Shown here piece after piece: positions 5,770-23,876 of a DNA stretch of 23,876 nucleotides. The number at the start of each line of letters is the position of its first letter. Position 1 is the first letter of the stretch. Source of the DNA: Sphingobium sp. (lineage in GTDB: Bacteria > Pseudomonadota > Alphaproteobacteria > Sphingomonadales > Sphingomonadaceae); assembly GCA_030148625.1 (NCBI GenBank), contig JASBTC010000122.1, positions 1 through 23,876 of the forward strand. The letters run 5' to 3'. A program made the translations under genes and the position numbers. The notes under the pieces were generated by a model. The model had not been told where the DNA came from. It did not search any database and was given only the letters and a program-made list of their open reading frames with translations.

Positions 5770-6461
5770 CAGCGCTCGGTCTCGAGTTCGCGGCTCAGCG
5801 TCGAGTGGAAGCCGTCGGCGAAGCGGTTGAGCCGGGCCTCGAAGCGGTTGATGCCGTGGCCGAAGCGGTTGAAGGCGATGACCGCCGGGATCGCGGCGAA
5901 CAGGCCGAGCGCGGTGGCGAACAGCGCCTCCGCGATACCGGGCGCCACGACCGCGAGCGAGCTGTTCTGCTCCGCCGCGATCGCGGTGAAGCTGCGCATG
6001 ATGCCCCAGACGGTGCCGAACAGGCCGACGAACGGCGCAACCGCGCCGACTGTCGCCAGGATGTTGAGCCGATCGGACAGCGTATCGATCTCGGCCGCGA
6101 TCGCGGCGCCCATTGCGGTCGCGAGACGCGCGCGCGTGCCTTCGCGGTCGATCGCCTTGCGGCTCGTCGAGCGGCGCCATTCGGATACGCCCGCGGCGAA
6201 TACCTTGGCACTGGGCAGATCCGAGCTGCTGTGGATCTTGTATAGCGTGTCGACATCCTCGGCCTTCCAGAATTCACGCTCGAATTTCTCGGAGGCGCGC
6301 GCGGTTTTCCGCAGCCGGGCGGCGAAGCCGATGATGATCGTCCAGGTCCAGATGCTGGCGAGCAGCAATCCGATCATGACGAATTTCACCACCCAGTCGG
6401 CCTGGACGAAGAGCGCGACCGGGGAGAGGGTCGCGGCGTCGGTATTCAATATGGCATTCAT
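5769..6461 (-). CDS. tolQ: TolQ/ExbB-family motor protein
   Basis: The 230-residue protein has three predicted membrane segments: residues about 24-44 ([21 protein letters not shown]), about 130-155 ([22 protein letters not shown]) and about 170-195 ([30 protein letters not shown]). The [13 protein letters not shown] and [19 protein letters not shown] motifs are the family signature of the proton-conducting MotA/TolQ/ExbB stator. TolQ with TolR powers TolA. The gene starts 16 bp after the ybgC stop and overlaps tolR by one base. The length and operon position favour TolQ over ExbB. Confidence 0.97.
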
Positions 6462-8231: not shown

Positions 8232-8259
8232 TTGAGCAACCGTGGGCCGATGCTACTAT
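8232..8259 (+). promoter_or_regulatory. Candidate promoter of the dipeptidase gene
   Basis: TTGAGC (8232-8237) and TACTAT (8254-8259) are separated by 16 bp and lie 30 bp upstream of the ATG at 8289. Both boxes are one or two changes from sigma-70 consensus. This is a visual match only; the same interval must also contain the divergent ruvB promoter. Confidence 0.4.
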
Positions 8260-8262
8260 ATT

Positions 8263-8278
8263 CCGATTCGAAAATCGG
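8263..8278 (+). promoter_or_regulatory. Perfect small palindrome in the leader of the dipeptidase gene
   Basis: CCGATT-CGAA-AATCGG forms a perfect 6-bp stem with a 4-base loop between the candidate -10 box and the start codon. Its 3' arm overlaps the G-rich ribosome binding site (8277-8283). It could be an RNA hairpin affecting translation or a protein-binding site; nothing here decides between them. Confidence 0.4.
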
Positions 8279-8288
8279 GGGGATTGCC

Positions 8289-9398
8289 ATGGACCGTCGT
8301 CACTTCATGCTCGGGACCGGCGCTGCCGCGGCGACGCTTGCTCTTGGTGGTCCGGGTTTCGCCGCGCCGGCGGATGCGGGTATTCTCATCGACGGCATGT
8401 CGGGGCTGAGCGGTTTCGAAGAGAAGGATGGCCGGTCGGTGCCGACCAAGGCACTTGTCGACGCGATCCGCGGCGGCAAGCTGACCGCACTCAGCCAGAC
8501 GATGGGCGAAGTCGGCAATGGCCCCGAACGCTTTCTGAAGGCGGTCAAGGAAATCGCCGACATGGACCGGCTGATCGCCGAAAATTCCGCATTGCTGGTG
8601 AAGATCGACAGTGCGGCGGATCTGCGCGCGGCAAAGGCGAGCCGGCGACTGGGCATGATCTATAATTTCCAGGACACGACCGCGCTTGAAGGCGATGTTT
8701 CGCGCGTCGCGCTGTTCAAGACGCTTGGTCTGCGTATCCAGCAACTCACCTACAACAAGCGCAATCTGGCGGGTGACGGCTGTCTCGAGCCCGGCAATGG
8801 CGGCATCTCGGATTTCGGCCGGCAGGTGATTGCGGAGGTCAATGCCAATCGGCTGCTGCTCGATCTCAGCCATTCCAGCCAGCGGACGATCGCGGAAGGG
8901 ATCGCGGCGAGCAAGGCACCGCCCGCGATCACGCACACCGGTTGTCGCGACCTCGTCGATTTCCCGCGCAACACCTTCGATCGCGAGATGCGCGCGGTGG
9001 CCGACAAGGGCGGCGTCGTCGGCATCTATCTGATGCCGTTCCTGCGGCCAAAGGGGCAGCCGGGTCGCGAGGATTTGCTCCGCCATCTCGATCATGCGGT
9101 GAAGGTGGCGGGTGAGGATCATGTGAGCATCGGTACCGACGGTCCGCTGACGGGCTTCGTCGTCGACGATGCGGCGCGCAAGGCGCAGCGCGAATTCTAC
9201 GAGGATCGCGCCAAACGCGGCATCGCGGCGCCCGGTGAGGCGGCCGATGTGATGAACCTGGTCGAAGGCTATAACGATGTCGACCGGATGGAAAACATTG
9301 CGGCCGACCTCAAGGCGCGGGGCTGGACCGCGGCCCGGATCGACAAGGTGCTGGGCGGCAATCTCCTGCGATTGTTTGGAGATGTCTGGGGCGGGTAA
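8289..9398 (+). CDS. Tat-exported M19 (membrane dipeptidase) family protein with altered metal site
   Basis: The 369-residue protein starts with a twin-arginine signal ([21 protein letters not shown]), so it is exported folded. The body aligns with peptidase M19: LLLDLSHSS with His195, [10 protein letters not shown] with His216 and [11 protein letters not shown] with Asp284 keep the second-half ligands. The first-half ligands are changed. The usual DGHxD motif reads D35-G-M-S-G39, losing His and Asp, and the bridging glutamate position reads Gln128 (NFQDTT). A normal two-zinc site is therefore unlikely; it may be a one-metal enzyme, act on another substrate, or not be a peptidase. I start at ATG 8289, preceded by GGGGGGA. 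It sits between ruvB and ruvA on the opposite strand. Confidence 0.85.
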
Positions 9399-12331: not shown

Positions 12332-12738
12332 CGGAACCTGGATCTGCTGAGTGTTCGGTGGGCGAGGGCACTAGCGGAACGGGCAGGGTCAGGGCAACTG
12401 TTTGCTCGATCGGACGCGTTTCCCGCGGCGCAGTCTCATGATCGTGCGGACCATGATGGCCAATCCTCCTTTCGACATTCCGGACAGACATCCTCCCGAT
12501 ACGATTGTCGCCGACATCGGCATCGCCGCCCCACTGCCCGGCATGATCGCCCTGCCAAGCTGGCCATTCGCGCTCTTGTAAAGCCGCTGGAGTCTGATAA
12601 ATAAAACTGAGATCAATATCATATATGGATGCTCTTCTTGCGATCAGGCACCCGTCTCACCACGCAAATCATGACTTGTGACTCCGATGCTTCGACCGGG
12701 CCGGTGGCGGGACATGGCCGGTGCGCGGAACGCCGTCG
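12332..12738. other. Intergenic region between yebC and the acylase gene
   Basis: This 407-bp gap separates the housekeeping block from the accessory region. It holds the divergent promoters of yebC and the acylase, which I cannot place with confidence. It also holds an AT-rich stretch (12590-12625) unlike its surroundings and an operator-like palindrome (12607-12622). A 47-codon frame on the plus strand (12438-12581, MIVRTMMANPPFDIPDRHPP...) and a 77-codon frame on the minus strand (12389-12622) are present. Neither has a ribosome binding site or a recognisable product, so I do not call them genes. Confidence 0.5.
12607..12622. promoter_or_regulatory. Weaker copy of the TetR-type operator upstream of the acylase gene
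   Basis: CTGAGATCAATATCAT matches 12 of 16 positions of the palindrome at 17236-17251 (read on the minus strand TTGAGGTCAATCTCAA), including the central TCAAT. It lies in the AT-rich stretch 117 bp upstream of the acylase start codon. It may place the acylase in the same regulon. A match this loose could be chance in 24 kb, so the position is the main support. Confidence 0.4.
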
Positions 12739-15138
12739 ATGAGCTGGTTGCGCCGTGCCGGGCGCTATGCGCTTTATGGCATGGGCGGCCTTGCCGCATT
12801 GGCGGCCGTCGCGATCGGTGGCGGATATGTCTGGTTGCGTGGCTCGCTTCCTACCTATTCCGGCACGATCGCGCTCGACGGCATCGGCGCGGATGTGGAG
12901 ATCGTGCGCGATCGCCAGGCGGTGCCGCATATCTTCGCGCGCTCGCGCGCCGACGCTTTTTTCGGGCTGGGCTATGTCCATGCGCAGGATCGGCTGTGGC
13001 AGCTCGAAATGGCTCGCCGCGCGGGCAGGGGGCGTCTCGCCGAGGCAGTGGGCGCCGATGGGCTCGCGACCGACATGCTGGTCGCCGCGCTCGATCTCGA
13101 TCGCGTCGCGGCGCGCACCGATGCCCGCAACGATATCGGCACCAAAGCCGCGATCCGCGCCTATGTCGCCGGGATCAACAAGGCGATCGATACGCGCAAG
13201 GGGCCGCTGCCGCCCGAATTCCTGCTGCTCGGCATCAAGCCGGAGCATTGGAGCGAAAGCGATGTGAACCGGCTGGGCGGGCTCGCCGCGCTCGGCTTCG
13301 GGGACTGGCGCGACGAACTCATGCGTGCGCGCCTCGTCGCGCGGATCGGCTGTGGCCGGATCCGCGATCTTTACGCCTCGCCGGACGATCAGGGCCCCGT
13401 CACCTATGCAGGCGTGGCCGCCGACAATGGCAGCCGCGCCGAGACTTGTGGCGCGATCCGCTTCTCCGGCAAGGCGACGGCGGCGATCCCCGCTTTGCCT
13501 TTCGGCCGCGCGCTTCCCGCCTCGAACAGTTGGGCGATCGCCGGCGCGCGCACGGCGAGCGGCAAGCCGATGCTTGCCAACGATCCGCACGGCCCGCTCG
13601 GCGCGCCCGCCGACTATTATCCGGTCCGAATGATATGGCCGGGGTTTGAGCTGGTCGGTGCGTCGCGACCGGGATCGCCGGTGATCGCCAGCGGACGCAA
13701 TCCCGATATCGCCTGGGGCGTCACCGACATGATGGCGGACCAGACCGATCTGTTCGTCGAGCGCGTCGATCCGGCCGATCCGCAACGCTATCTCACGCCA
13801 TCGGGCTCGGCGCGGTTCGGCATGCGCCGCGTCCTCATCCCGGTGCGCGGCGCGGCGCCGAAGCAGGTCATGCTCAGATATACCCGCCACGGCATGGTGA
13901 TTTCCGATCTCGACAAGGATGCCGCGGCTTTGCTCGGCGACCAGATCGGCCCGGGCCATGTCATCGCGCTGGCCGGTCTCGATTTCCCCGACGGCAACCC
14001 GCTCGTCAAGGCGTTCCTGGCTATGGCGGAAGCGCGCGACTGGGCGGGATTCCGGACGGCGGCGCGCGATTTCGGGCTGCAGCACAATTTCGCCTATGCC
14101 GATCGCGCCGGCACGGTTGCGATGCTTTCGGCGGGCCATTTGCCGCTGCGCCGCGGAGATGGCTTCCTTCCAGTTCCCGGCTGGGACGCACGCTTCGATT
14201 GGCAGGGCTTCATCGCGCCCGATGCGTGGCCTGCCGAGCATATGCCGGACGCTGGCTTCATCGCCAACGCCAATAACCGCCTGGTCGCGGGCAGGGGCGG
14301 ATCGCTCGACAGCGCGAGCTTCGAACCCGGCTGGCGCGCGGCGCGGATCGGCGCGGTGCTCGCGCGGACGGCCAGGGCCGATGTCAGGAGCCAGGTCGCG
14401 CTCCAGACCGATATCGTCTCTGCGCAGGTTGAGGCGCTCCGCCCCATTCTTCTGGCAATGCGGCCGGGCCGCGACGCGGTCCGCGCGCGGACCATGCTCC
14501 TTGCCTGGAACGGCGCGATGGCCGCCGATCGCCCCGAACCGCTGATCTGGGCCGCATGGCAGCGCGCGCTCGGCCGCAAGCTGCTCCGGCCCGCGCTGGG
14601 ACCGCTTGCCGAGACCTGGCTCGCAGACAAGCGCCCGCGCCTCGATCGGCTGCTGCGGCCCGGCAGCCCCTGGTGCGGCGATTGTACCGCGCTTGCGGCG
14701 TCGGCGCTGGACGAGGCGATCGCGGATCTCGGACGCGAACAGGGAAGCGACATGGCCGCGTGGCACTGGGGCCGCGTCCACCGGGCGACCTTTCGTCACG
14801 ACATCTTCGCCGGTCTGCCGCTGATCGGGCGGCTGGTCACGCCGCGCGTGCCGGCGGGTGGCGACGCCTTCACGGTCAATGCCGGGGAAGGCAAGCTGTG
14901 GAGCGACGATCCGTGGACCGATGTCTATGGCCCGCGCTACCGCCAGATCATCGATCTCGCCGCACCCGAGCGCAGCCTGTTCATGATCGCGCCCGGCATT
15001 TCGGGCAATCCGCTCTCGCCATGGTTCGGCCATCTCGCCGGATCGTGGAGCGAAGGACGCTATTTCACGCTGGCGGGCGACGCCGCGTCGCTGCGCAAGA
15101 CTGGCGGGGGTGATCTGATCCTGCGGCGGAAGCGTTGA
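12739..15138 (+). CDS. Penicillin-acylase family Ntn hydrolase, membrane-anchored
   Basis: The 799-residue precursor has an N-terminal hydrophobic anchor or uncleaved signal (about 10-33, YALYGMGGLAALAAVAIGGGYVW). An alpha chain follows with VEIVRDRQAVPHIFA and FGLGYVHAQDRLWQLEMARR (about 75-94). The autocatalytic cleavage site is before Ser262 in PASNSWAIAG, the new N-terminal nucleophile of the beta chain. HNFAYADRAGTVAM carries the oxyanion-hole asparagine region. Family members cleave N-acyl amides: beta-lactam side chains, acyl-homoserine lactones, or N-acylated peptides. Which applies is not readable here. ATG 12739 is preferred over GTG 12721, with a weak purine-rich site upstream. It converges with the CocE-type gene and may share its TetR control. 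Confidence 0.92.
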   Translation: MSWLRRAGRYALYGMGGLAALAAVAIGGGYVWLRGSLPTYSGTIALDGIGADVEIVRDRQAVPHIFARSRADAFFGLGYVHAQDRLWQLEMARRAGRGRLAEAVGADGLATDMLVAALDLDRVAARTDARNDIGTKAAIRAYVAGINKAIDTRKGPLPPEFLLLGIKPEHWSESDVNRLGGLAALGFGDWRDELMRARLVARIGCGRIRDLYASPDDQGPVTYAGVAADNGSRAETCGAIRFSGKATAAIPALPFGRALPASNSWAIAGARTASGKPMLANDPHGPLGAPADYYPVRMIWPGFELVGASRPGSPVIASGRNPDIAWGVTDMMADQTDLFVERVDPADPQRYLTPSGSARFGMRRVLIPVRGAAPKQVMLRYTRHGMVISDLDKDAAALLGDQIGPGHVIALAGLDFPDGNPLVKAFLAMAEARDWAGFRTAARDFGLQHNFAYADRAGTVAMLSAGHLPLRRGDGFLPVPGWDARFDWQGFIAPDAWPAEHMPDAGFIANANNRLVAGRGGSLDSASFEPGWRAARIGAVLARTARADVRSQVALQTDIVSAQVEALRPILLAMRPGRDAVRARTMLLAWNGAMAADRPEPLIWAAWQRALGRKLLRPALGPLAETWLADKRPRLDRLLRPGSPWCGDCTALAASALDEAIADLGREQGSDMAAWHWGRVHRATFRHDIFAGLPLIGRLVTPRVPAGGDAFTVNAGEGKLWSDDPWTDVYGPRYRQIIDLAAPERSLFMIAPGISGNPLSPWFGHLAGSWSEGRYFTLAGDAASLRKTGGGDLILRRKR

Positions 15139-15297: not shown

Positions 15298-17187
15298 CTA
15301 ATCACGCCAGGGCCGCAGGTCGACCGACAGGCTGCTGGGGTAAAGTTCGCTCCGCTGCACCTGCCAGCTTTCGGCCCTGGCTTCGGAATAGCGCCGGAAC
15401 GTGCCGGCATCCGCGCCGGCAAGGCTGAGGCGCAGCCGATGTCCGGCCTTGATCCGCGCCGCGACCGGGAAGGTCGGGAAGCTGACCTCGGCGACCTTGC
15501 CCGGCACCATCGGCATGGCATCGGCACGGGCGAAGCTCTTGGCGGGTTCCGGCTGGGAATAGGGAAGCCGATCCGCACGCGCCGGCTTGCGATGGACCGC
15601 GCGGAACAGACCTTCGGTGAGATAGGTCACCCGGCCATCGGGCGCGACGTCTTCGAGATAGGCGAAGAAGGCCGGATCGGCGGTGGCGGTTTCGACGAAC
15701 AGTGTCACGGCGGGGGTGCCGACCAGCTCCATGGCCCGCGGGAACGGTTCCGAGCTATAGGTCAGCAGCTTGCGATCGGCTTCGCGCCGGTCGCCATAGG
15801 CGGCCGGGGCGCCGATCTGCGTGGTCCAGCGCGTGGCGGTTCCGGTGGTCGCGGAAAAATCCACGCCGTAGCGGTCCGCACCGTCGGGGCCGGAGCGTCC
15901 GCCGGACAGCGAACCGCCCGCGCCCAGGCGGAATTGGGTGCGCTTCACGTCCGCCGGTGGCCATTGGGCCGTGGTCCGGAATATGCCCGCGCCCAGCACA
16001 TAATAATGGATCGCGCGCACCACTGGCTTGCCGGCCCGGACATTGGCGATGAACGCCGAGATTCTGGTCCATTGATCCTCGAACGACGGAAGCGGCGGGG
16101 TCGTGTCGGGAAAGAAGGGATCGGTCAGGCGGTTGCCGCCATGGGTGTTGGCGGTGATCCATACCTCCATCGGCACGTCCGGAAGTGACCGATAGCGCGC
16201 GAGCGTGCCCTCCGCGGTGCCGGCATCCATCCAGCTTGCCCAATATTGGACCGGCACGCGCCTGCGTGCGATGTCCGCCAGCCGGGAAGCCGGGCTCGAC
16301 GAGAACATGGTGAAGCCGTTCTCGCCCTTGTCGTCGCGAAATTCCGCGCGGCGATAATCGTCGGGTTTCCAGTGGCGCCGCGATGCGATCGCCTGGCGCA
16401 GCAGCGCATGATCTGAATCCGCGTCGACCGGCTGGAGGCGGGGCCAGAGGCGCGCGCAATCCTCGACGCGCGCGCCGCAATCGAATCCCTCTTTCGGGTC
16501 GAGCGACTTGCCATAGTCGCGCAGCAGCGTGTCGCCGCCCCACAGGCGCATCATCATGTCGTTGGCGACCCCGCCGGGCGCGAAGAGGTGGAGATACGCA
16601 TCGAAATCGCTCGCCCGGATGACCGCGCCGGTCAGCCCCGCGGGCGATCCGGTCGCCAGATCGGCGGTGTCCGCCATGTAGGAGACGCCCTGCGCGAATA
16701 TCTGTCCGTTCGACCACGGTCGGGTCTTCAGGTGCCTGATGATCACATCCATGTCGCGGATCTCGTCGGGACCGATCTCGACCATCCGGTCGCCGAAGGA
16801 TGCGGTCGAGCCGCGCGTGTCGACGATCGCGACGACATAGCCCTGGTCCACCAGCGCGCGATATTTGCCGCCTTCGCCGTGGATGAAGGTTCCCGCGCGG
16901 CCATAGCGGGTCTGGACGAGCAGCACGGGGTGCTTCCCCTCGGCACGGCCACCGGGAAACCAGAGACTGACGGCGACACGCACCCCGTCGGGCATTGCAA
17001 GATAATAGGAACGGTCGCTCCAGCCGGCAGGGCGCGCCGTGGCGGCGGCCGGCTGTGCGAGGGGCGGGGGCGCGGCCGTCCCCGTGCCGCCGACGCTCCC
17101 CGCGAGCAGCAGGGAGGTTAATAGCGCGCACCGGGCGAGCGTGCCGCTCACGCCTGCCTGTCCCCTCATCCATCCCAATCGCCGCAT
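15298..17187 (-). CDS. CocE/NonD-family secreted serine hydrolase (S15-like)
   Basis: The 629-residue protein has a Sec-type signal (ARCALLTSLLLAGSVGGTGTAAP, about 18-40). An alpha/beta-hydrolase domain of the CocE / X-Pro dipeptidyl-peptidase type follows. Key segments are LLVQTRYGRAGTF, VAIVDTRGSTASFG, the nucleophile elbow AQGVSYMAD (Ser169), WASWMDAGTAEG (Asp321) and ITANTHGGN (His349). These give a complete Ser-Asp-His triad. The C-terminal jelly-roll domain (from about 480, GTPAVTLFVETATADPAFFAYLEDVAPDG) is also typical. Known members are esterases, acylases and X-Pro peptidases. ATG 17187 has GGAG 7-8 bases upstream. The operator-like palindrome lies 49 bp upstream, and the serine hydrolase gene diverges from it. 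Confidence 0.92.
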   Translation of the reverse strand: MRRLGWMRGQAGVSGTLARCALLTSLLLAGSVGGTGTAAPPPLAQPAAATARPAGWSDRSYYLAMPDGVRVAVSLWFPGGRAEGKHPVLLVQTRYGRAGTFIHGEGGKYRALVDQGYVVAIVDTRGSTASFGDRMVEIGPDEIRDMDVIIRHLKTRPWSNGQIFAQGVSYMADTADLATGSPAGLTGAVIRASDFDAYLHLFAPGGVANDMMMRLWGGDTLLRDYGKSLDPKEGFDCGARVEDCARLWPRLQPVDADSDHALLRQAIASRRHWKPDDYRRAEFRDDKGENGFTMFSSSPASRLADIARRRVPVQYWASWMDAGTAEGTLARYRSLPDVPMEVWITANTHGGNRLTDPFFPDTTPPLPSFEDQWTRISAFIANVRAGKPVVRAIHYYVLGAGIFRTTAQWPPADVKRTQFRLGAGGSLSGGRSGPDGADRYGVDFSATTGTATRWTTQIGAPAAYGDRREADRKLLTYSSEPFPRAMELVGTPAVTLFVETATADPAFFAYLEDVAPDGRVTYLTEGLFRAVHRKPARADRLPYSQPEPAKSFARADAMPMVPGKVAEVSFPTFPVAARIKAGHRLRLSLAGADAGTFRRYSEARAESWQVQRSELYPSSLSVDLRPWRD

Positions 17188-17235: not shown

Positions 17236-17251
17236 TTGAGATTGACCTCAA
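17236..17251. promoter_or_regulatory. Candidate TetR operator, divergent cocE-type/serine hydrolase promoters
   Basis: TTGAGATTGACCTCAA is a palindrome with perfect 5-bp arms (TTGAG/CTCAA) around 6 bases. Its reverse complement matches the site at 19569-19584 in 14 of 16 positions. It lies 48 bp upstream of the CocE-type start and 79 bp upstream of the chosen serine hydrolase start. It directly follows a TATAAT sequence (17231-17236) on the plus strand. The most likely ligand is the TetR protein encoded at 18801-19511. Confidence 0.7.
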
Positions 17252-17330
17252 GTTTATAAATTTGCAAGAGACGATGATGTCGACCAGCCCCTTCGGCGCG
17301 AGCATGCGCCGGATTGCCGAGGACAAGCGT

Positions 17331-18794
17331 ATGAAACCGACCGATCCCGCAGCCACGGTAGATACCGGTTCGCCGGGCGCTTCGCACGTGAACGCGCTTT
17401 CCCGGCGTGGCTTGTTCGGCCTGTCGGGCGCGCTGGCTTTTTCCGGCGCCATCGCCGCTCGCGGGCAGGCGGCGTCCGCGAGCGACCCGATTGCCGGGAT
17501 CGTTCAACATGCGATGGAGCAGGGCCCGTTTCCCGGCATTGTCGTCGCGGTCCAGAAGGGCGATCGGACACTCTATCGCCAGGGTTTCGGCTATATCGAC
17601 GTGGAGAACAGGGTCGCGGCGACGCCGGAGGCGGTGTTCCCGATCGGATCGGTCACCAAGACCATGACCGGCCTTGCGATCATGCAGCTCGTCGCACAGG
17701 GCAAGATCGCTCTCGACGACGTGGCGGGCCAATATATCGACGGCCTGCCGGCGCCGGTCGCCGCGCTGCGGATCCGCAATCTCGCGGATCATAGTGCGGG
17801 GCTGGTCGGCTATCTCGATGTGCCGGGCTTTCCGCGCACGAGCCAGGATCCGATTACCCGGCAACAGGTCGTAGGCTGGTTCGCGAAACAGCCGCTTCAA
17901 TTCGAGCCCGGGACGCGCTGGAGCTACAGCAATTCGGGCATCTACCTGCTCGGCCTGATCATCGAGAAAGTGTCGGGTCTCGGCTATGACCGCTATCTGC
18001 AGGACAATGTCTTCGCGCCGTTCGGAATGGCGAACAGTTCGATCACCGGCTGGGCCCGGCTGCAGCCGGGCCGGGCGCATGGCTACAGGCTTGGCCGCAA
18101 TGGGCTCGAAAATGCGCAGCGCTACGATCCGCTGGTCGCCTTTTCGGCGGGGGCGGTGCTCTCGACCGTCGACGACATGCTCCGATATCGCCGCGGCGTG
18201 TTTGGCGACGGGCCGACTACAAAGGCGGTTCGCGGGCTCATCCTTCAGCGCGACCGGTTGAAGAGCGGCACGTTGCTTCCCTATTCGCTCGGCTGCCTCG
18301 CCATCGCCGATTTCGAAGGACACCGGAAGATCGGGCATCCCGGCGACATTTTCGGCTTCAGCGCGCAATATGCCTATTATCCCGACGACGACGTCACGAT
18401 CGTGCTGCTTTCCAACATCCAATATGGCGGCATCTCGATCGTTTCGCTCGAACAGAAGATCGCGCGCGTGGTGCTGGGATTGCCCCAGCCCGTCATCGTC
18501 GATGCGCCGCTTTCCGCAGCCGATGCTGCGCGCTTCTCCGGCAGTTACGCGCTTGGCGAGATACGCTTTGCGGTCGATGCGATGCGCTTCGCCGTCAAGG
18601 ACGGCGGGCTGCAGGTCGGATTCGTCAAAGGCGGCGAGAGCGGTCCCGGGATTCCGCTGCGCTATCAGGGCAGAGGCGAATTCGTGTCGCGTTACGACGA
18701 CGAGCAGCGCTTCCGGTTCGAAGGTGCCGGCCGGCAGCGCAGGGTTTTCATGTCGTCCTACGGCTCGGTCTTCGAAGCGGTGGCGATTCCCTGA
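17331..18794 (+). CDS. Tat-exported serine hydrolase, class C beta-lactamase fold
   Basis: The 487-residue protein has a long N-region and then a twin-arginine signal (SRRGLFGLSGALAFSGAIAA, Arg25-Arg26). The catalytic domain carries the three penicillin-binding motifs: SVTK (Ser107 to Lys110), YSN (Tyr199 to Asn201) and HPG (336-338) in place of the KTG box. Members include esterases, D-amino-acid peptidases and beta-lactamases; the HxG form is common in esterase-like members. A C-terminal domain of about 100 residues follows (SAADAARFSGSYALGEIRF), as in related family proteins. I chose ATG 17331 because GAGGA lies 7 bases upstream; ATGs at 17274 and 17277 are alternatives. It ends 6 bp from the convergent tetR gene. 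Confidence 0.9.
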   Translation: MKPTDPAATVDTGSPGASHVNALSRRGLFGLSGALAFSGAIAARGQAASASDPIAGIVQHAMEQGPFPGIVVAVQKGDRTLYRQGFGYIDVENRVAATPEAVFPIGSVTKTMTGLAIMQLVAQGKIALDDVAGQYIDGLPAPVAALRIRNLADHSAGLVGYLDVPGFPRTSQDPITRQQVVGWFAKQPLQFEPGTRWSYSNSGIYLLGLIIEKVSGLGYDRYLQDNVFAPFGMANSSITGWARLQPGRAHGYRLGRNGLENAQRYDPLVAFSAGAVLSTVDDMLRYRRGVFGDGPTTKAVRGLILQRDRLKSGTLLPYSLGCLAIADFEGHRKIGHPGDIFGFSAQYAYYPDDDVTIVLLSNIQYGGISIVSLEQKIARVVLGLPQPVIVDAPLSAADAARFSGSYALGEIRFAVDAMRFAVKDGGLQVGFVKGGESGPGIPLRYQGRGEFVSRYDDEQRFRFEGAGRQRRVFMSSYGSVFEAVAIP

Positions 18795-18800
18795 ATGTCC

Positions 18801-19511
18801 TTATGGAGCGAGCCATGCGGCGAGGGCTGCGACGGGTTCGGCAAGGCCGTCCGGCGCCGGCTCGTCGGGATAGAAGATGCGCAGCCAGATCAGGCTGCTG
18901 GCGTCGGCGACGACATCGTCGTCGGCGCCCATCTCCGTCAGCAGTTCGAGCAGGCTGGGATCGGGATAGACGATCAGCTTGCGCACCAGTTCGTCCATCA
19001 TGCCGCCGAGCAGATAGGCGGCGAGCATGGGGACGCCGGGACCGGTGCCGCGACGACGGCGCACGCCCTCGGCGACGCGCTGATACCAGACCCGGTTGGC
19101 GTCCTGGCTGAGCCGGGCGAATTCCGGCGTCTCGTCCCCGACCTGGAGGATGCAGCGCATGAGTCCGGCATTGGCGCGGCATACCGAGATCCAGCGACGG
19201 TTGGTCAGCCGGATCGAATCATAGGCCGTCCGATCGCCGTCGCGCGGCGTTTCGAGATTGAAGAAGTTTTCCAGCAGGTCCGTAAGGACAGTGACCGCGG
19301 CGTCGGTCTTGTCCTTGAAGTAAACGTAAAAAGAACCCTCGGCCATTTCGGCGGTCTCGGTAACATCCGAGACACGCATCGCATGATAACCCTTCTTCTC
19401 AAGAACTTTTGCAGTCGCAATCTTGATGCGATCACGCGTTCTCAACCCCTTTTGCTTAGGAGGGTCGTTGCGATATGTGGCTTCGAGGTGCTCGATATAA
19501 GATAGATTCAT
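18801..19511 (-). CDS. TetR/AcrR-family transcriptional regulator
   Basis: The 236-residue protein has an N-terminal helix-turn-helix (about 47-68, VSDVTETAEMAEGSFYVYFKDK), diagnostic of TetR-type repressors. A larger helical ligand-binding domain follows. The N-terminus carries about 20 extra residues before the first DNA-binding-domain helix, ending in a basic stretch (PPKQKGLRTRDRIK), longer than in classical TetR. It is transcribed divergently from the maoC-transporter-ligase operon. The palindrome at 19569-19584 lies in the 99-bp gap, and near-copies precede the other hydrolase genes. The expected role is a repressor released by the substrate or its CoA ester. That is inference from position; the ligand is unknown. 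Confidence 0.93.
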   Translation of the reverse strand: MNLSYIEHLEATYRNDPPKQKGLRTRDRIKIATAKVLEKKGYHAMRVSDVTETAEMAEGSFYVYFKDKTDAAVTVLTDLLENFFNLETPRDGDRTAYDSIRLTNRRWISVCRANAGLMRCILQVGDETPEFARLSQDANRVWYQRVAEGVRRRRGTGPGVPMLAAYLLGGMMDELVRKLIVYPDPSLLELLTEMGADDDVVADASSLIWLRIFYPDEPAPDGLAEPVAALAAWLAP

Positions 19512-19568
19512 GGATTCATCTTGAAAAAATGGGATGCGAGCATTCTTGCCGATTGACGTTGGTTATAA

Positions 19569-19584
19569 ATGAGGCCAATCTCAA
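19569..19584. promoter_or_regulatory. Candidate TetR operator between tetR and the maoC operon
   Basis: ATGAGGCCAATCTCAA carries near-perfect inverted arms (TGAG/CTCA) around 6 bases. It agrees in 14 of 16 positions with the reverse complement of the site at 17236-17251. A TTATAAA sequence adjoins both copies on the same side. It lies 57 bp upstream of the tetR start and 26 bp upstream of the maoC start, suited to control both, including autoregulation. Confidence 0.7.
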
Positions 19585-19610: not shown

Positions 19611-20102
19611 ATGACTCACACAGCCGTCACTCAGCCAAGCGCCTCGCTGCAACCCGGCGACCAGCTTGGTCCCTCGGAGTGGATCGAGGTCACCCAGAGC
19701 ATGATTAGCCAGTTCGGCGTCATCACAAAAGACCCCGATCCGATGCACATCGATCCCGAATGGGCGCGGTCGAACGGTCCTTATGGCGGGCCGATCGCTT
19801 TCGGCTTCCTCACGCTCGCGCTGCTGACCCATATGCTGCACGAAGCGGTCGGCACCGACCCGCAGGCGGAGCGGCGCGAGCCGGGGCATTTCCTCAACTA
19901 TGGTTTCAACCGCGTGCGCTTCATCGCACCTGTCCGGGCCGGCGATCGGGTGCGCGGACATTTCCAGGTGAGCGAGAAAGTCGCCGACGAACAGGATCGC
20001 TGCCTCACCACCTTCGCCTGCCGGATCGAGATCGAGGGTGGCGAGCGCCCGGCGCTGATCGCCGAGTGGCTGTCGATCGCCGTTCCGCCCGAAAAGGACT
20101 GA
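19611..20102 (+). CDS. MaoC-family hot-dog hydratase
   Basis: The 163-residue single-domain protein matches (R)-specific enoyl-CoA hydratases. The hydratase motif is DPDPMHIDPEWARSNGPYGGPIAFGFL, with Asp41 and His46 as the catalytic pair. Asp43 stands where many members have asparagine. Such enzymes add water to the double bond of trans-2-enoyl-CoA in the cytoplasm. I chose ATG 19611, preceded by GGGAAA; an upstream ATG at 19569 falls inside the operator. It is followed by the transporter gene after 2 bp and an acyl-CoA ligase that could supply its substrate. No dehydrogenase or thiolase is present in the window, so the rest of the route lies elsewhere. Confidence 0.9.
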   Translation: MTHTAVTQPSASLQPGDQLGPSEWIEVTQSMISQFGVITKDPDPMHIDPEWARSNGPYGGPIAFGFLTLALLTHMLHEAVGTDPQAERREPGHFLNYGFNRVRFIAPVRAGDRVRGHFQVSEKVADEQDRCLTTFACRIEIEGGERPALIAEWLSIAVPPEKD

Positions 20103-20104
20103 AC

Positions 20105-21382
20105 GTGACGTCGCGCGGAGTGTTCAACGGCCGCGAAACGGGCTTGTACGCGATCGGATCCTTCGGCACGGGCGCTTTCTCGACGGTGCCGACCGTGCTG
20201 CTCCTTTATTTCTGTACCGAGATCGTCGGGATTCCCGCGGCCACCGCGGCGCTGATCGTCTTTGTCCCCAAATTATGGACCCTGTTCTGGGATCCGTTCG
20301 TCGGGGGATGGTCCGACCGCACGGTGAGCCGCTTCGGGCGGCGGCGGCCCTTTCTCGTAGCTGGTGCGGCCGGGACCGGCATCGCGTTCGCCCTGCTGTT
20401 CGCGCCGCCGCCGATGGCGCCGGCGGGCCTCTCGCTCTGGGTGGGGCTGAGCTATCTCGCGCTCGTGACCTTCTATGCCCTTTTTGCGGTTCCCTATGTC
20501 GCGCTCCCGGCCGAATTCGCCAGGACCGCGTCGGATCGGTCGCGCCTTGTGGGCTGGCGCATGGCCGCGGCCATGATCGGCGTGCTCGCGGGGGCCTCGC
20601 TTGCGCCCATGCTCGTCGCCGCGGCCGGCGGCGGGCGGACCGGCTATGCCGTCATGGCGCTTTGGCTGGGCGCGACGTGCGCGATATCGATGCTCGCGCC
20701 CCTGTTCGTCCTGAGCGGCCGCGACGGGCCCGTGGCGACGGCGACGGTCGAGCGCGGAGCACTATGGCGCCAAATGCAGGCCGCCGTCCGCGACCGCGCG
20801 TTCCGATGGCTGGTGATCGCCTATATCCTCATGCTCGCGGCCGCCGGAATCATGTCGGCCTCGGCGCCTTATCTTGTCGTTCACGCGCTTTCGCGGAACG
20901 AGGCGGATATCGGCGTCGCGCTCGGAATCATGCTGGTCGCCACCAGCCTGACCGCGCCCGTGCTTGCATGGGCCGGCCGCCGTTGGGGCGAGGCTCCTGC
21001 GCTGACCGTATCGATCCTCGCTTATATCCTCGCCGCCGCGATCGTGGCACTCGCGGCGAGATACCATCATTGGCCGATGATGCTGGCCGGGTTCGCGCTG
21101 GCGGGGCCGGCATTCGCGGGGCTGCAGGTTCTCCCCTATACGATGGTGGCGCACCTGATCCATGCCCGTGCGGCCGCGGGAACCGCGGCGGAAGGGACGC
21201 TGACGGGCATGTGGACCGCTGCGGAGAAGATCGGCCTTGCCCTGGGGCCGCTCGCCACGGCGCTCGCGCTCGCGATGGTCCAACGGGATTATGCGGGCGG
21301 ACTGGCGGGGTTCGTCATGCTGGCGACCGCGGCGCTCGGCATGCTTTCGATTCCCTTGCTGCGACTGGCGGGACAGTCATGA
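20105..21382 (+). CDS. MFS transporter of the GPH (MelB-like) type
   Basis: The 425-residue protein has about 12 hydrophobic segments. The loop motif WDPFVGGWSDRTVSRFGRRRPF after the second helix is typical of the glycoside-pentoside-hexuronide:cation symporter branch (MFS_2). Despite the family name, members near catabolic genes in sphingomonads often sit in non-sugar clusters, so the substrate is not implied. The start is GTG 20105 (MTSRGVFNGRETGLYAIGSFG), 2 bp after the maoC stop. The ligase ATG overlaps its stop by 4 bp. It is likely the inner-membrane step that follows import by the nearby TonB-dependent receptor. Confidence 0.88.
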   Translation: MTSRGVFNGRETGLYAIGSFGTGAFSTVPTVLLLYFCTEIVGIPAATAALIVFVPKLWTLFWDPFVGGWSDRTVSRFGRRRPFLVAGAAGTGIAFALLFAPPPMAPAGLSLWVGLSYLALVTFYALFAVPYVALPAEFARTASDRSRLVGWRMAAAMIGVLAGASLAPMLVAAAGGGRTGYAVMALWLGATCAISMLAPLFVLSGRDGPVATATVERGALWRQMQAAVRDRAFRWLVIAYILMLAAAGIMSASAPYLVVHALSRNEADIGVALGIMLVATSLTAPVLAWAGRRWGEAPALTVSILAYILAAAIVALAARYHHWPMMLAGFALAGPAFAGLQVLPYTMVAHLIHARAAAGTAAEGTLTGMWTAAEKIGLALGPLATALALAMVQRDYAGGLAGFVMLATAALGMLSIPLLRLAGQS

Positions 21383-22947
21383 CCGACCTGCCACCACCGC
21401 TGCCCCGGATCAGCGATTATGCCGGCTGGCACGCGAGGCTGCGGCCGGATGCGGTCGCGCTCAAGCTGGACGACCGCGCCTGGACCTATGCCGAGCTGTC
21501 GGCCGCCGTGGACCGGCTGGCATGCGCGCTGCTCGCCGCCGGCATCGGCAAGGGCGATCGCGTTGCCACGCTCCAGCCGCCGCATCCGGCCTATCTGGTC
21601 GATTTTCTGGCGACCGCCTCGATCGGCGCGATCTGGGTGGGGCTCAACCCGCGCTACCGGCTCGAGGAACTGTCGCATGTCCTCACGGATTCGGAGCCGG
21701 CCATCCTCTTGGGCCGAAGGCATATCGGCGATCGCTGTTACGACACCGAACTGGCGGCGCTCGCGGCCACCTGCCCCTCGCTTGGGCGTATCATCCTCCA
21801 CGACAGTGTCGACGGTCCGCCGGGGATCGAGCCGATGGCGGCGTTCCTGCAGTCCGGCGACGGTATCGGGAAGGACAGGCTGGACACCGCGCGCGCCGGC
21901 TGTGGCGGCCGCGATCCGTGCCTGATCGTCTACACGTCGGGATCGACGGGTGCGCCGAAGGGCGCGCTGCTGCATCATGCTGGCCTGACCCAGTTCAGCC
22001 TTGCGCAGAACGACCTTTGGCCATTCCCGTCGCTTCGGGTGATCAATTATTTTCCGATCAACCATGTCGGTTCCGTCGTCGACTGCAGCCTGCCCTGCCT
22101 CGTCGCCGGCGGTACGACGATCTTCATGGAAAAATTCGATCCGGCCGAATGCCTGAGACTCATGGCGCGGGAACGGGTGACATTATGGGGTTCGGTGCCG
22201 AGCACCTTTCCGATGATTCTCGATCTTCCCGACTTTGCGGATCACGATCTTTCGGCGGTCGAGCTGATCATATGGGGCGGGGCGGCGATGAGTGGGGATG
22301 TGATCGCGCGCCTGGCGGCACTGGGGCCGGCGCTCGCGACCAATTACGGGATGACCGAAACCACCAGCGCGATCACCGCCATAGCGCCGACGCGCGACCT
22401 GGAACGGCTTGCCAATTCCGTCGGCCCGGCGTTTCCGGGCGTCGAGATCAGGCTGTGCGGCGCGGACGGCGCGCCGGTCGGGCAGGGTGAGGTCGGTGAG
22501 GTCCAGGCGCGATCGGCGCTGAATTTCCTGGGATATTGGCGCAGGGCCGATGCGACGGCCGAAGCATTCACCGACGACGGCTATTTCCGCACCGGCGACC
22601 TGGCGGTGCTGCGGCCCGACGGATGCTATCGGATCGTCGGGCGCATCAAGGAGATGTACAAGTCCGGCGGCTACAACGTCTATCCGCGCGAAGTGGAGGC
22701 GGTGCTCGAATCGCACCGCGCGGTCGAGGCCGCAGCCGTGGTCGCCATGCCGGATCCGATATGGCAGGAGGTCGGCATCGCCTTCGTCACGCTCGGCGCG
22801 CCCGTCGACCCCGCCGATCTCTATGCCTGGTGCCGCGCGCGCCTCGCCAACTACAAACTTCCCAAGCGCATCGAGATCGAGCGCGTGCTGCCGCTGCTTC
22901 CGATCGGCAAGATCGACAAGGCGGCGCTTCGGCGGCGGCTGGGTTGA
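21379..22947 (+). CDS. Acyl-CoA ligase (AMP-binding, class I adenylate-forming)
   Basis: The 522-residue protein activates a carboxylic acid to its CoA thioester through an acyl-AMP. It has the phosphate-binding loop YTSGSTGAPKG (185-195), the A5 motif NYGMTET (322-328), the A7 region YFRTGDLAVLRPDG, the hinge region VGRIKEMYKSGGYNVYPREVE and the catalytic C-terminal lysine in LPIGKIDKAAL. The form resembles FadD-like or aryl/alkanoate ligases; the chain length or ring preference cannot be read. The ATG overlaps the transporter stop (ATGA), so the maoC-transporter-ligase genes form one coupled operon. It probably feeds the hydratase. Confidence 0.93.
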   Translation: MTDLPPPLPRISDYAGWHARLRPDAVALKLDDRAWTYAELSAAVDRLACALLAAGIGKGDRVATLQPPHPAYLVDFLATASIGAIWVGLNPRYRLEELSHVLTDSEPAILLGRRHIGDRCYDTELAALAATCPSLGRIILHDSVDGPPGIEPMAAFLQSGDGIGKDRLDTARAGCGGRDPCLIVYTSGSTGAPKGALLHHAGLTQFSLAQNDLWPFPSLRVINYFPINHVGSVVDCSLPCLVAGGTTIFMEKFDPAECLRLMARERVTLWGSVPSTFPMILDLPDFADHDLSAVELIIWGGAAMSGDVIARLAALGPALATNYGMTETTSAITAIAPTRDLERLANSVGPAFPGVEIRLCGADGAPVGQGEVGEVQARSALNFLGYWRRADATAEAFTDDGYFRTGDLAVLRPDGCYRIVGRIKEMYKSGGYNVYPREVEAVLESHRAVEAAAVVAMPDPIWQEVGIAFVTLGAPVDPADLYAWCRARLANYKLPKRIEIERVLPLLPIGKIDKAALRRRLG

Positions 22948-23139: not shown

Positions 23140-23876
23140 TCAGAAGTTCACCCGATATTCCACGCCATAGGTGCGCGGTTCGCCCAGTGTGATCAGTTTC
23201 TGGCCGTTGAGTGTGTTGTCATAAAGGTCGAAGAGCCTGGTCATATAGGTCTTGTCGGTCACATTCTTGCCGAACAACGAGACGCGCCAGCGGTCATTGC
23301 CGGACGCCAGCGTCATCCGCAGGTTGAGCAGCCCATAGGCGCCGACGCGGCCGTCGGGATCGTTGTTGGTGGTCAGATAGCTGCGGCCACGAAGCTGATA
23401 TTCCGCCTGGACCGTCAGCGGGCCGATGCCCGTCGGGACCGTATATTCCGCATGGATGTCGCCGGTATAGGCCGGGGCGAAGGGAATGAAGCGCAGCGGT
23501 TGCCCGTCCGGAAGCAGCCCTTCCTCATATTTCGCGTCCTGCACCGCGATATTGCCGCCCAGCCGCAGCCGATCGCTGATACGCGCATCGACTTCGATCT
23601 CGACGCCCCGGCTATGGGCGCGGCCGGCGTTGAGGATGATCGGATTGAAGAAGGTGGTCGCGGGATTCTGCGTGGTGATCTGGATGTCGTTCCAGCGCAT
23701 CGCATAGACGGCCGCGTTGATCGAGAGGCGGCGGTCCAACAATTCGGCCTTCAATCCGGCCTCGTAGTTCCAGAGCGATTCGGGTCCGAATGCGATGCCG
23801 TTGGCGTCGCCCAGCGCGTCGTTGAAACCACCGCTCTTGAAGCCCTTCGACGCGGTGAGATAGGTCATCAGCGTCG
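23140..23876 (-). CDS. TonB-dependent outer-membrane receptor (C-terminal part)
   Basis: Only the last 245 residues or so are in the window; the gene continues past the right edge. The sequence is an outer-membrane beta-barrel: YLTASKGFKSGGFN, LWNYEAGLKAELLDRRLSINAAVYAMRWND, GVEIEVDARISDRLRLGGNIAVQDA, and a C-terminal strand ending in phenylalanine (YGVEYRVNF), the barrel-assembly signal. TonB-dependent receptors of this form in sphingomonads take up a wide range of compounds. It converges on the ligase gene with a hairpin repeat between them. It probably serves the same substrate as the hydrolases, but its promoter is outside the window, so shared control cannot be checked. Confidence 0.93.
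   Translation of the reverse strand, partial: TLMTYLTASKGFKSGGFNDALGDANGIAFGPESLWNYEAGLKAELLDRRLSINAAVYAMRWNDIQITTQNPATTFFNPIILNAGRAHSRGVEIEVDARISDRLRLGGNIAVQDAKYEEGLLPDGQPLRFIPFAPAYTGDIHAEYTVPTGIGPLTVQAEYQLRGRSYLTTNNDPDGRVGAYGLLNLRMTLASGNDRWRVSLFGKNVTDKTYMTRLFDLYDNTLNGQKLITLGEPRTYGVEYRVNF

What the first reader, a model, noticed from the sequence alone, without database searches (positions are those of the whole stretch)
17236..19584. Near-identical 16-bp palindrome in both divergent promoter regions of the hydrolase/CoA cluster
TTGAGGTCAATCTCAA (17236-17251, minus strand) and ATGAGGCCAATCTCAA (19569-19584) agree in 14 of 16 positions, are palindromic, and sit only in the two divergent gaps of this cluster. 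One gap carries tetR itself. This looks like the operator of the encoded TetR protein and would define a local regulon of five or more genes.
Basis: partly seen in the sequence, partly recalled or inferred. Interest (0 to 1): 0.7.

Follow-up and report, generated by a model that had tools for sequence, protein, structure and literature searches.

The report
Local TetR regulon with three operators
A DNA-binding switch protein in a Sphingomonas-like bacterium very probably recognises a short mirror-image DNA word in front of its own gene and of neighbouring genes that look made for taking up and cutting an amide- or ester-containing nutrient; the arrangement is of an ordinary kind, and we found no description of this particular switch.

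Summary
TGAG-N6-CTCA occurs exactly twice in the window (17237, 19570; 0.16 expected by chance), in the two gaps named. Sphingomonas colocasiae keeps the cluster with four sites, the fourth before a TonB receptor. Over 29 related loci plus the window, 40 sites not used for training were found; 37 lie at the starts of cluster genes. A clade with a changed recognition helix (AEGS to AAAT) carries TGAT/TGAC instead of TGAG half-sites. Best explanation: an autoregulated TetR repressor of a local uptake-and-hydrolysis regulon. Binding, repression and inducer are untested; the nutrient (acylated peptide-, amide- or ester-like) is inferred. New member of a known kind, well supported, of moderate interest.

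The parts
17237..17250 (.). operator 1, TGAGATTGACCTCA, in the divergent gap between the CocE hydrolase (-) and the S12 serine hydrolase (+); directly preceded on + by TATAAT
   Evidence: exact pattern; 34.7 bits with a matrix that excludes the window; matching site in S. colocasiae, L041:9972
19570..19583 (.). operator 2, TGAGGCCAATCTCA, in the divergent gap between tetR (-) and MaoC (+); directly preceded on + by TATAAA
   Evidence: exact pattern; 33.4 bits; same core in L001, L002, L003
   Evidence: 33.7 bits, no other separate window site above 10; matching site L041:4035 in S. colocasiae, 29.9 bits
12739..15138 (+). penicillin-acylase-family hydrolase; the ORF opens at GTG 12721, ATG 12739 is likelier
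   Evidence: PF01804, 616 bits; closest solved relatives D-succinylase and glutaryl-7-ACA acylase
15298..17187 (-). CocE/NonD (S15) hydrolase with an N-terminal export-like signal (by eye)
   Evidence: TIGR00976, 222 bits against cut-off 66; PF02129 and PF08530; cocaine esterase in PDB
17274..18794 (+). S12 serine hydrolase (beta-lactamase/D-peptidase fold) with a twin-arginine-like signal (by eye); start 17274 or 17331
   Evidence: PF00144; PDB matches to PBP-like enzymes, D-peptidases and beta-lactamases; far below the cut-offs of the class C beta-lactamase models among the 25 of 46 NCBIfam rows shown
18801..19511 (-). TetR-family regulator, 236 aa, recognition helix around A57-E58-G59-S60
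   Evidence: PF00440, 36 bits; AlphaFold2 pLDDT 91.9; FadR/EthR-like fold
19611..20102 (+). MaoC-like enoyl-CoA hydratase, first gene of the ligase operon
   Evidence: PF01575; Rv0130 (2c2i) in PDB
20105..21382 (+). MFS_2 / GPH-type transporter (start approximate)
   Evidence: PF13347, 217 bits
21379..22947 (+). AMP-forming acyl-CoA ligase (start approximate)
   Evidence: PF00501, 264 bits
23140..23868 (-). C-terminal part of a TonB-dependent receptor that runs off the window; its promoter, with a predicted operator, lies outside
   Evidence: PF00593; in S. colocasiae an operator (L041:18607) lies 41 bases before an in-frame ATG of the receptor that is followed by a signal-like peptide

Best explanation
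The TetR protein at 18801-19511 is an autorepressor of a local catabolic regulon. A dimer binds AT-flanked TGAG-N6-CTCA operators beside or over the promoters of (a) tetR and the MaoC-transporter-CoA-ligase operon, (b) the CocE and S12 hydrolases, (c) a penicillin-acylase-family enzyme, and (d) a TonB receptor whose promoter is outside the window. When the nutrient, or an acyl or acyl-CoA product of it, is present, the repressor lets go; the receptor and exported hydrolases then take up and cut the compound, and transporter, ligase and hydratase send the acyl part into beta-oxidation. Shown by computation: the sites, their conservation, their placement before these genes, and covariation with the recognition helix. 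Inferred: binding, repression, inducer type, and substrate class (amide- or ester-linked acyl compound, perhaps an acylated peptide). The confidence below is for the TetR-operator-regulon claim, not for the substrate.
For: A matrix from 13 relatives' tetR promoters, window excluded, finds three window sites at 33-35 bits. S. colocasiae has the same gene order with four sites. Over 29 loci plus the window there are 53 sites of at least 20 bits; 13 are training sites, and of the other 40 (the window's 3 included) 37 lie at starts of cluster genes (TonB receptor 17, MaoC 12, S12 5, TetR 5, CocE 2, MFS 2, ligase 1, acylase 1; one site can serve two genes). Markov-resampled sequence gave 2 such hits in 20 replicates of the whole set. 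A locus found by another route, plasmid pTHN of Novosphingobium sp. THN1 (TetR about 40% identical), has one site (33.4 bits) in its MaoC/ligase gap, next best 9.8. Covariation: with E/D at residue 58, half-site position 4 is G in 69 of 88 half-sites; with A58, in 0 of 18. Genome G164 holds both types 5.5 kb apart, each with its own operator type. Genome control.
Against: No binding, expression or ligand data. 10 of 29 loci have no site of 15 bits or more in front of tetR itself, so autoregulation is not universal; 4 of 29 (Idiomarinaceae) have no site at all. The A58 regulators form one clade (98/95 support), so the 69/88 against 0/18 contrast reflects about one event; the matrix also favours G. 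L011 and L028 keep E58 but have one TGAT arm; L013 and L014 one TGAA arm. 7 of the 22 strict genome matches lie elsewhere. Some TonB-receptor sites fall inside the longest reading frame; in the 8 such cases checked a later in-frame start lies 35-56 bases past the first base of the site. The sigma-70 scan found only one promoter-like site, over operator 3, at shuffle level, so promoter overlap rests on TATAAW boxes read by eye. Some loci are near-duplicates (L013/L014, L007/L024).
Confidence: 0.88

Rival explanations
1. The palindrome is the site of a different regulator encoded elsewhere that happens to control the same cluster; the local TetR uses another site.
For: 10 of 29 loci have no site of 15 bits or more in front of tetR itself. 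No direct binding data.
Against: The half-site changes together with the TetR recognition helix, also between two neighbouring paralogues in one genome. The site is present in clusters of other make-up that hold the TetR (L006, L020, pTHN). In 20 genomes without a detected relative the pattern is at control level, 5 against 4.
Confidence: 0.07
2. The two words agree because the two divergent promoter regions share ancestry or AT-rich promoter composition, without a regulator.
For: Both sites are next to TATAAW in AT-rich gaps.
Against: Dinucleotide shuffles and Markov-resampled sequence do not give it. It is kept in loci with 40-60% identical TetR proteins, where the rest of the tetR upstream sequence looks unlike (by eye), and it stands before unrelated genes.
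Confidence: 0.02
3. TetR is an activator or dual regulator at these sites rather than a simple repressor.
For: Distances from site to gene start vary.
Against: TATAAW touches the operator in both divergent gaps of the window, which fits blocking of RNA polymerase (sequence reading); most TetR proteins repress (general knowledge).
Confidence: 0.08

Closest known systems
FadR of Bacillus and SaFadR (TetR-family acyl-CoA-responsive repressors)
   Same: Among the closest by sequence in the PDB (3whb, 1vi0, 6el2) and top by Foldseek (3whc); FadR proteins control fatty-acid genes through palindromes (recalled)
   Different: 38.5 bits against an NCBIfam equivalog cut-off of 200; the regulon here includes TonB receptors and exported hydrolases
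EthR of Mycobacterium tuberculosis
   Different: Fold resemblance only; different regulon (recalled)
EdcR of Caenibius tardaugens (sphingomonad TetR repressor of estrogen catabolism, PMC8700777; passages seen)
   Same: Same logic: TetR gene beside a catabolic cluster, a palindrome over the -10 box of several promoters, proposed autoregulation
   Different: Operator TnnCnnTACnAnTnGTAnnGnnA, of which the window has no match with up to 2 mismatches; other genes and substrate
PheR of Sphingobium sp. SHPJ-2 (PMC13273656; passages seen)
   Same: A sphingomonad repressor whose loss raises catabolic genes and TonB receptors
   Different: Discussed there among IclR-family regulators; other binding site

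Membership tests
TetR/AcrR family of transcriptional regulators | N-terminal HTH of PF00440 | tested here: met
   PF00440 at residues 32-70, 36.2 bits against cut-off 24
TetR/AcrR family of transcriptional regulators | all-helical fold with C-terminal ligand/dimer domain | tested here: met
TetR/AcrR family of transcriptional regulators | palindromic operator near its own gene and its targets | tested here: met
   the operator role itself is inferred
TetR/AcrR family of transcriptional regulators | dimer binds the operator and is released by a ligand | not testable with these tools
   needs EMSA, footprint, ligand screen
FadR (TetR-type fatty-acid regulator) | NCBIfam equivalog cut-off | tested here: not met
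   NF053878: 38.5 bits against 200
FadR (TetR-type fatty-acid regulator) | response to long-chain acyl-CoA | not testable with these tools
   ligand assay needed
class C beta-lactamase (for gene 17274-18794) | NCBIfam class C equivalog cut-off | tested here: not met
   NF033085: 97 bits against 415; the broad fold family PF00144 is met
penicillin acylase family (for gene 12739-15138) | PF01804 over the full length | tested here: met
   616 bits, profile 1-673 of 675; the NCBIfam scan of this protein failed and was not repeated
EdcR regulon | operator TnnCnnTACnAnTnGTAnnGnnA | tested here: not met
   0 matches in the window with up to 2 mismatches, motif from PMC8700777

The most novel reading that the evidence does not exclude
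An undescribed TetR subfamily, spread patchily through Sphingomonadaceae, Caulobacteraceae, Hyphomonadaceae and others, governs interchangeable 'receptor + hydrolase + CoA-ligase' scavenging cassettes for acylated peptide- or amide-like natural products (hydrolases seen behind its operators include acylase, S12, S15, S58 and MlrC/M81 types). Paralogues living in one genome are kept apart by a change at recognition-helix residues 58-60 matched by a change at half-site position 4 (TGAG to TGAT/TGAC).
Probability: 0.4. Interest if true: 0.5.

Novelty: new member of a known kind. Interest (0 to 1): 0.36.

Why it matters
It gives a testable operator, target list and regulator for a group of sphingomonad and caulobacterial gene clusters whose nutrient is unknown; finding the inducer would help name the substrate of several uncharacterised hydrolases and TonB receptors. 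The matched change of helix and half-site is a small natural experiment in how TetR paralogues may avoid cross-talk.

Tried and rejected
Scan of the window's own genome: not possible, none is held. Reading the ATG at 19569 (inside operator 2) as the MaoC start: set aside in favour of 19611, because it would put the operator inside the coding sequence. Reading the long minus-strand ORF 12619-15033 as a gene: rejected, it has no Pfam match while the plus-strand ORF is a full-length penicillin-acylase-family protein. Reading the S12 gene as a beta-lactamase: not supported at equivalog level. A microcystin-type (mlr) pathway: considered because one Niveispirillum site lies between CocE and an MlrC-family gene and because L021 is from Sphingosinicella microcystinivorans. 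Among the window proteins scanned there is no MlrC-family hit, and the paper search (listing and starts of abstracts only) showed no TetR link, since its 'tetr' counts also match words such as 'tetrapeptide'. The sigma-70 scan was at shuffle level. A family that the structure tools do not list is not excluded by that. Literature searches for this regulator or cluster showed nothing that describes it; apart from the two papers of which I saw passages I saw listings only, and only the open-licence library was searched.

Full report
WHAT IS THERE. The window is from a sphingomonad-like bacterium: among the reference genomes searched, the closest TetR protein is 92% identical, in Sphingomonas colocasiae. 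The two words of the finding are at the stated places and differ at 2 of 16 positions. The exact pattern TGAG-N6-CTCA occurs nowhere else in the window; 0.16 matches are expected by chance. Genes around it: a CocE/NonD hydrolase (15298-17187, -), an S12 serine hydrolase (17274-18794, +), the TetR regulator (18801-19511, -), then MaoC, an MFS_2 transporter and an AMP-forming CoA ligase (19611-22947, +), and the end of a TonB receptor (23140-23868, -). Upstream lies a penicillin-acylase-family gene (12739-15138, +), which the finding did not include.

TEST ON RELATIVES. Of 300 protein matches, 120 were listed; I aligned the window's TetR with 33 of them and found 29 loci in reference genomes. 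Thirteen have the exact palindrome between positions 5800 and 6000, in front of tetR at 6001. A 26-base symmetric matrix from these 13, with the scored locus always left out and the window never in it, gave the window sites 34.7 (17237) and 33.4 (19570) bits and a third one, 33.7 bits, at 12608 in front of the acylase gene; no other separate site exceeds 10. In the loci, 17 of 29 have a site of at least 20 bits in the tetR promoter, two more (L022, L023) one of 15.9 and 16.2 bits, and 10 none of 15 or more; 25 of 29 have at least one site of 20 bits somewhere. With the full matrix, the S. colocasiae region shows the same gene order, with about 1.4 kb of extra sequence between acylase and CocE, and four sites: acylase 29.9, CocE/S12 32.7, TetR/MaoC 34.8 and TonB receptor 28.1 bits (the TetR/MaoC site is a training site, the others are not).

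PLACEMENT. Over the 29 loci plus the window (386,238 bases) there are 53 sites of at least 20 bits. Of the 40 that were not training sites, 37 lie in the zone from 250 bases upstream to 60 bases inside the start of a cluster-gene homologue, as projected from BLAST alignments; such zones make up 22% of the sequence (binomial p about 1.5e-21, too optimistic because some loci are near-duplicates). Of the 3 outside, two are 29 bases before TonB-receptor reading frames (L007:31, L016:6858), and one (L004:6752) faces an ORF without a Pfam match. Twenty Markov-resampled replicates of the whole set gave 2 hits in all, the highest 25.9 bits. Some receptor sites fall just inside the longest reading frame; in the 8 such cases that I checked, another in-frame start lies 35-56 bases past the first base of the site and leads into what looks by eye like a signal peptide. 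A locus found by another route, plasmid pTHN of Novosphingobium sp. THN1 (L068), has a single site of 33.4 bits in its MaoC/ligase gap, with the next best at 9.8.

GENOME CONTROLS. The loose pattern WWNTGAN8TCANWW gave 137 forward matches in 8 TetR-bearing genomes against 27 for the reversed pattern. Of the 72 matches in the four fully listed genomes, 13 score at least 20 bits and 11 of these lie in a tetR neighbourhood (the neighbourhood count is mine from coordinates, and 5 of the 11 are training sites). The strict pattern gave 22 against 0 in these 8 genomes, and 5 against 4 in 20 genomes of the family of G001 in which one search found no relative at E of 1e-25. Fifteen of the 22 lie within 20 kb of a tetR relative; nine of these are tetR-promoter sites, so 6 of the 13 others are near and 7 are not. 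The regulator is rare: 13 of 397 genomes of that family, G001 itself included, have a match at E of 1e-25 or better, several of them to more distant subgroups.

REGULATOR AND OPERATOR CHANGE TOGETHER. The recognition helix reads AEGSFY in the window and in most loci with TGAG sites (L016, L017 and L020 have SEGTFY, SDGSFY and SEGLFY). In L018, L019, L022 and L023, a supported clade (98/95), it reads AAATFY, and the half-sites are TGAT or TGAC, rarely TGAA. At 15 bits or more, half-site position 4 is G in 69 of 88 half-sites of 22 E/D58 sequences (window included) and in 0 of 18 half-sites of 3 A58 loci. Left out were L018, because it holds two regulators, and the four Idiomarinaceae loci, whose helix differs and which have no site; sites had to keep TGA or TCA on at least one arm. 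In genome G164 both types lie 5.5 kb apart: L045 (AEGSFY) with TGAGGATTGGCTCA and L055 (AAATFY) with TGATATCAGTATCA; the L055 protein is 100% identical to that of L018 over the matched 219 residues, so it is not a further example. That Glu58 reads the C opposite the G is my inference. Counter-examples: L011 and L028 (E58) have one TGAT arm, L013 and L014 one TGAA arm.

HOW IT PROBABLY WORKS. In both divergent gaps a TATAAW box directly precedes TGAG on the plus strand, so a bound dimer would cover promoter elements; the consensus scan does not confirm this. Derepression would yield the receptor, the exported hydrolases, and the transporter-ligase-hydratase set. Related loci put operators of this family before other hydrolases: an S58-family enzyme (L018) and an MlrC/M81-family gene (L062), and place enoyl-CoA hydratase genes in the neighbourhood (L006, L011). 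A nutrient with acyl-amide or ester bonds, perhaps an acylated peptide, is therefore the best guess, at perhaps 50%.

VERDICT. It is an ordinary TetR regulon in kind; I found no description of it, and it has a useful natural variant of its operator code.

Noticed in passing
window 12608-12621: Third operator in front of a penicillin-acylase-family gene, outside the coordinates of the finding.
   Followed up: yes
L018:5892, L019:5882, L022:5885, L023:5882: A clade of TetR relatives with recognition helix AAATFY carries TGAT/TGAC half-sites instead of TGAG.
   Followed up: partly
L045 and L055 (genome G164, contig C23): Two paralogous TetR genes of the two helix types lie about 5.5 kb apart, each with its own operator type.
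   Followed up: partly
L062:8350 (G399:C86): A 42.8-bit site in the divergent gap between a CocE hydrolase and an MlrC/M81-family gene in a Niveispirillum MAG, 17 kb from its tetR.
   Followed up: partly
L063:4198 (G399:C260) and G399:C232:71064: Strong sites on other contigs of the same fragmented MAG, the first inside the longest reading frame of a TonB-receptor-like gene; possible distant regulon members.
   Followed up: no
L066:4503 and a second palindrome 47 bases further (G001:C15): Two closely spaced palindromes, TGAGCTTTTATTCA and TGAGCTTTTACTCA, before another TonB receptor in S. colocasiae, perhaps the operator of a related regulator.
   Followed up: no
L010/L012 and L011/L015: Sphingomonas lycopersici and Sphingomonas sp. 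ERG5 each hold two TetR paralogues with different operator cores (AACTAT against GTTGAG or ATTGAG).
   Followed up: no
L021, L068: Relatives of the cluster occur in Sphingosinicella microcystinivorans and on plasmid pTHN of Novosphingobium sp. THN1 from Lake Taihu; any link to cyanobacterial peptides is untested.
   Followed up: partly
L024:6001-6700 and L024:2281-4078: The tetR and CocE homologues of this Hyphomonadaceae MAG each appear in two pieces in different frames, by frameshift or sequencing error.
   Followed up: no
window 8232-9398: An M19 membrane dipeptidase with a twin-arginine signal lies next to ruvB, upstream of the cluster; no operator of this type scores there.
   Followed up: no
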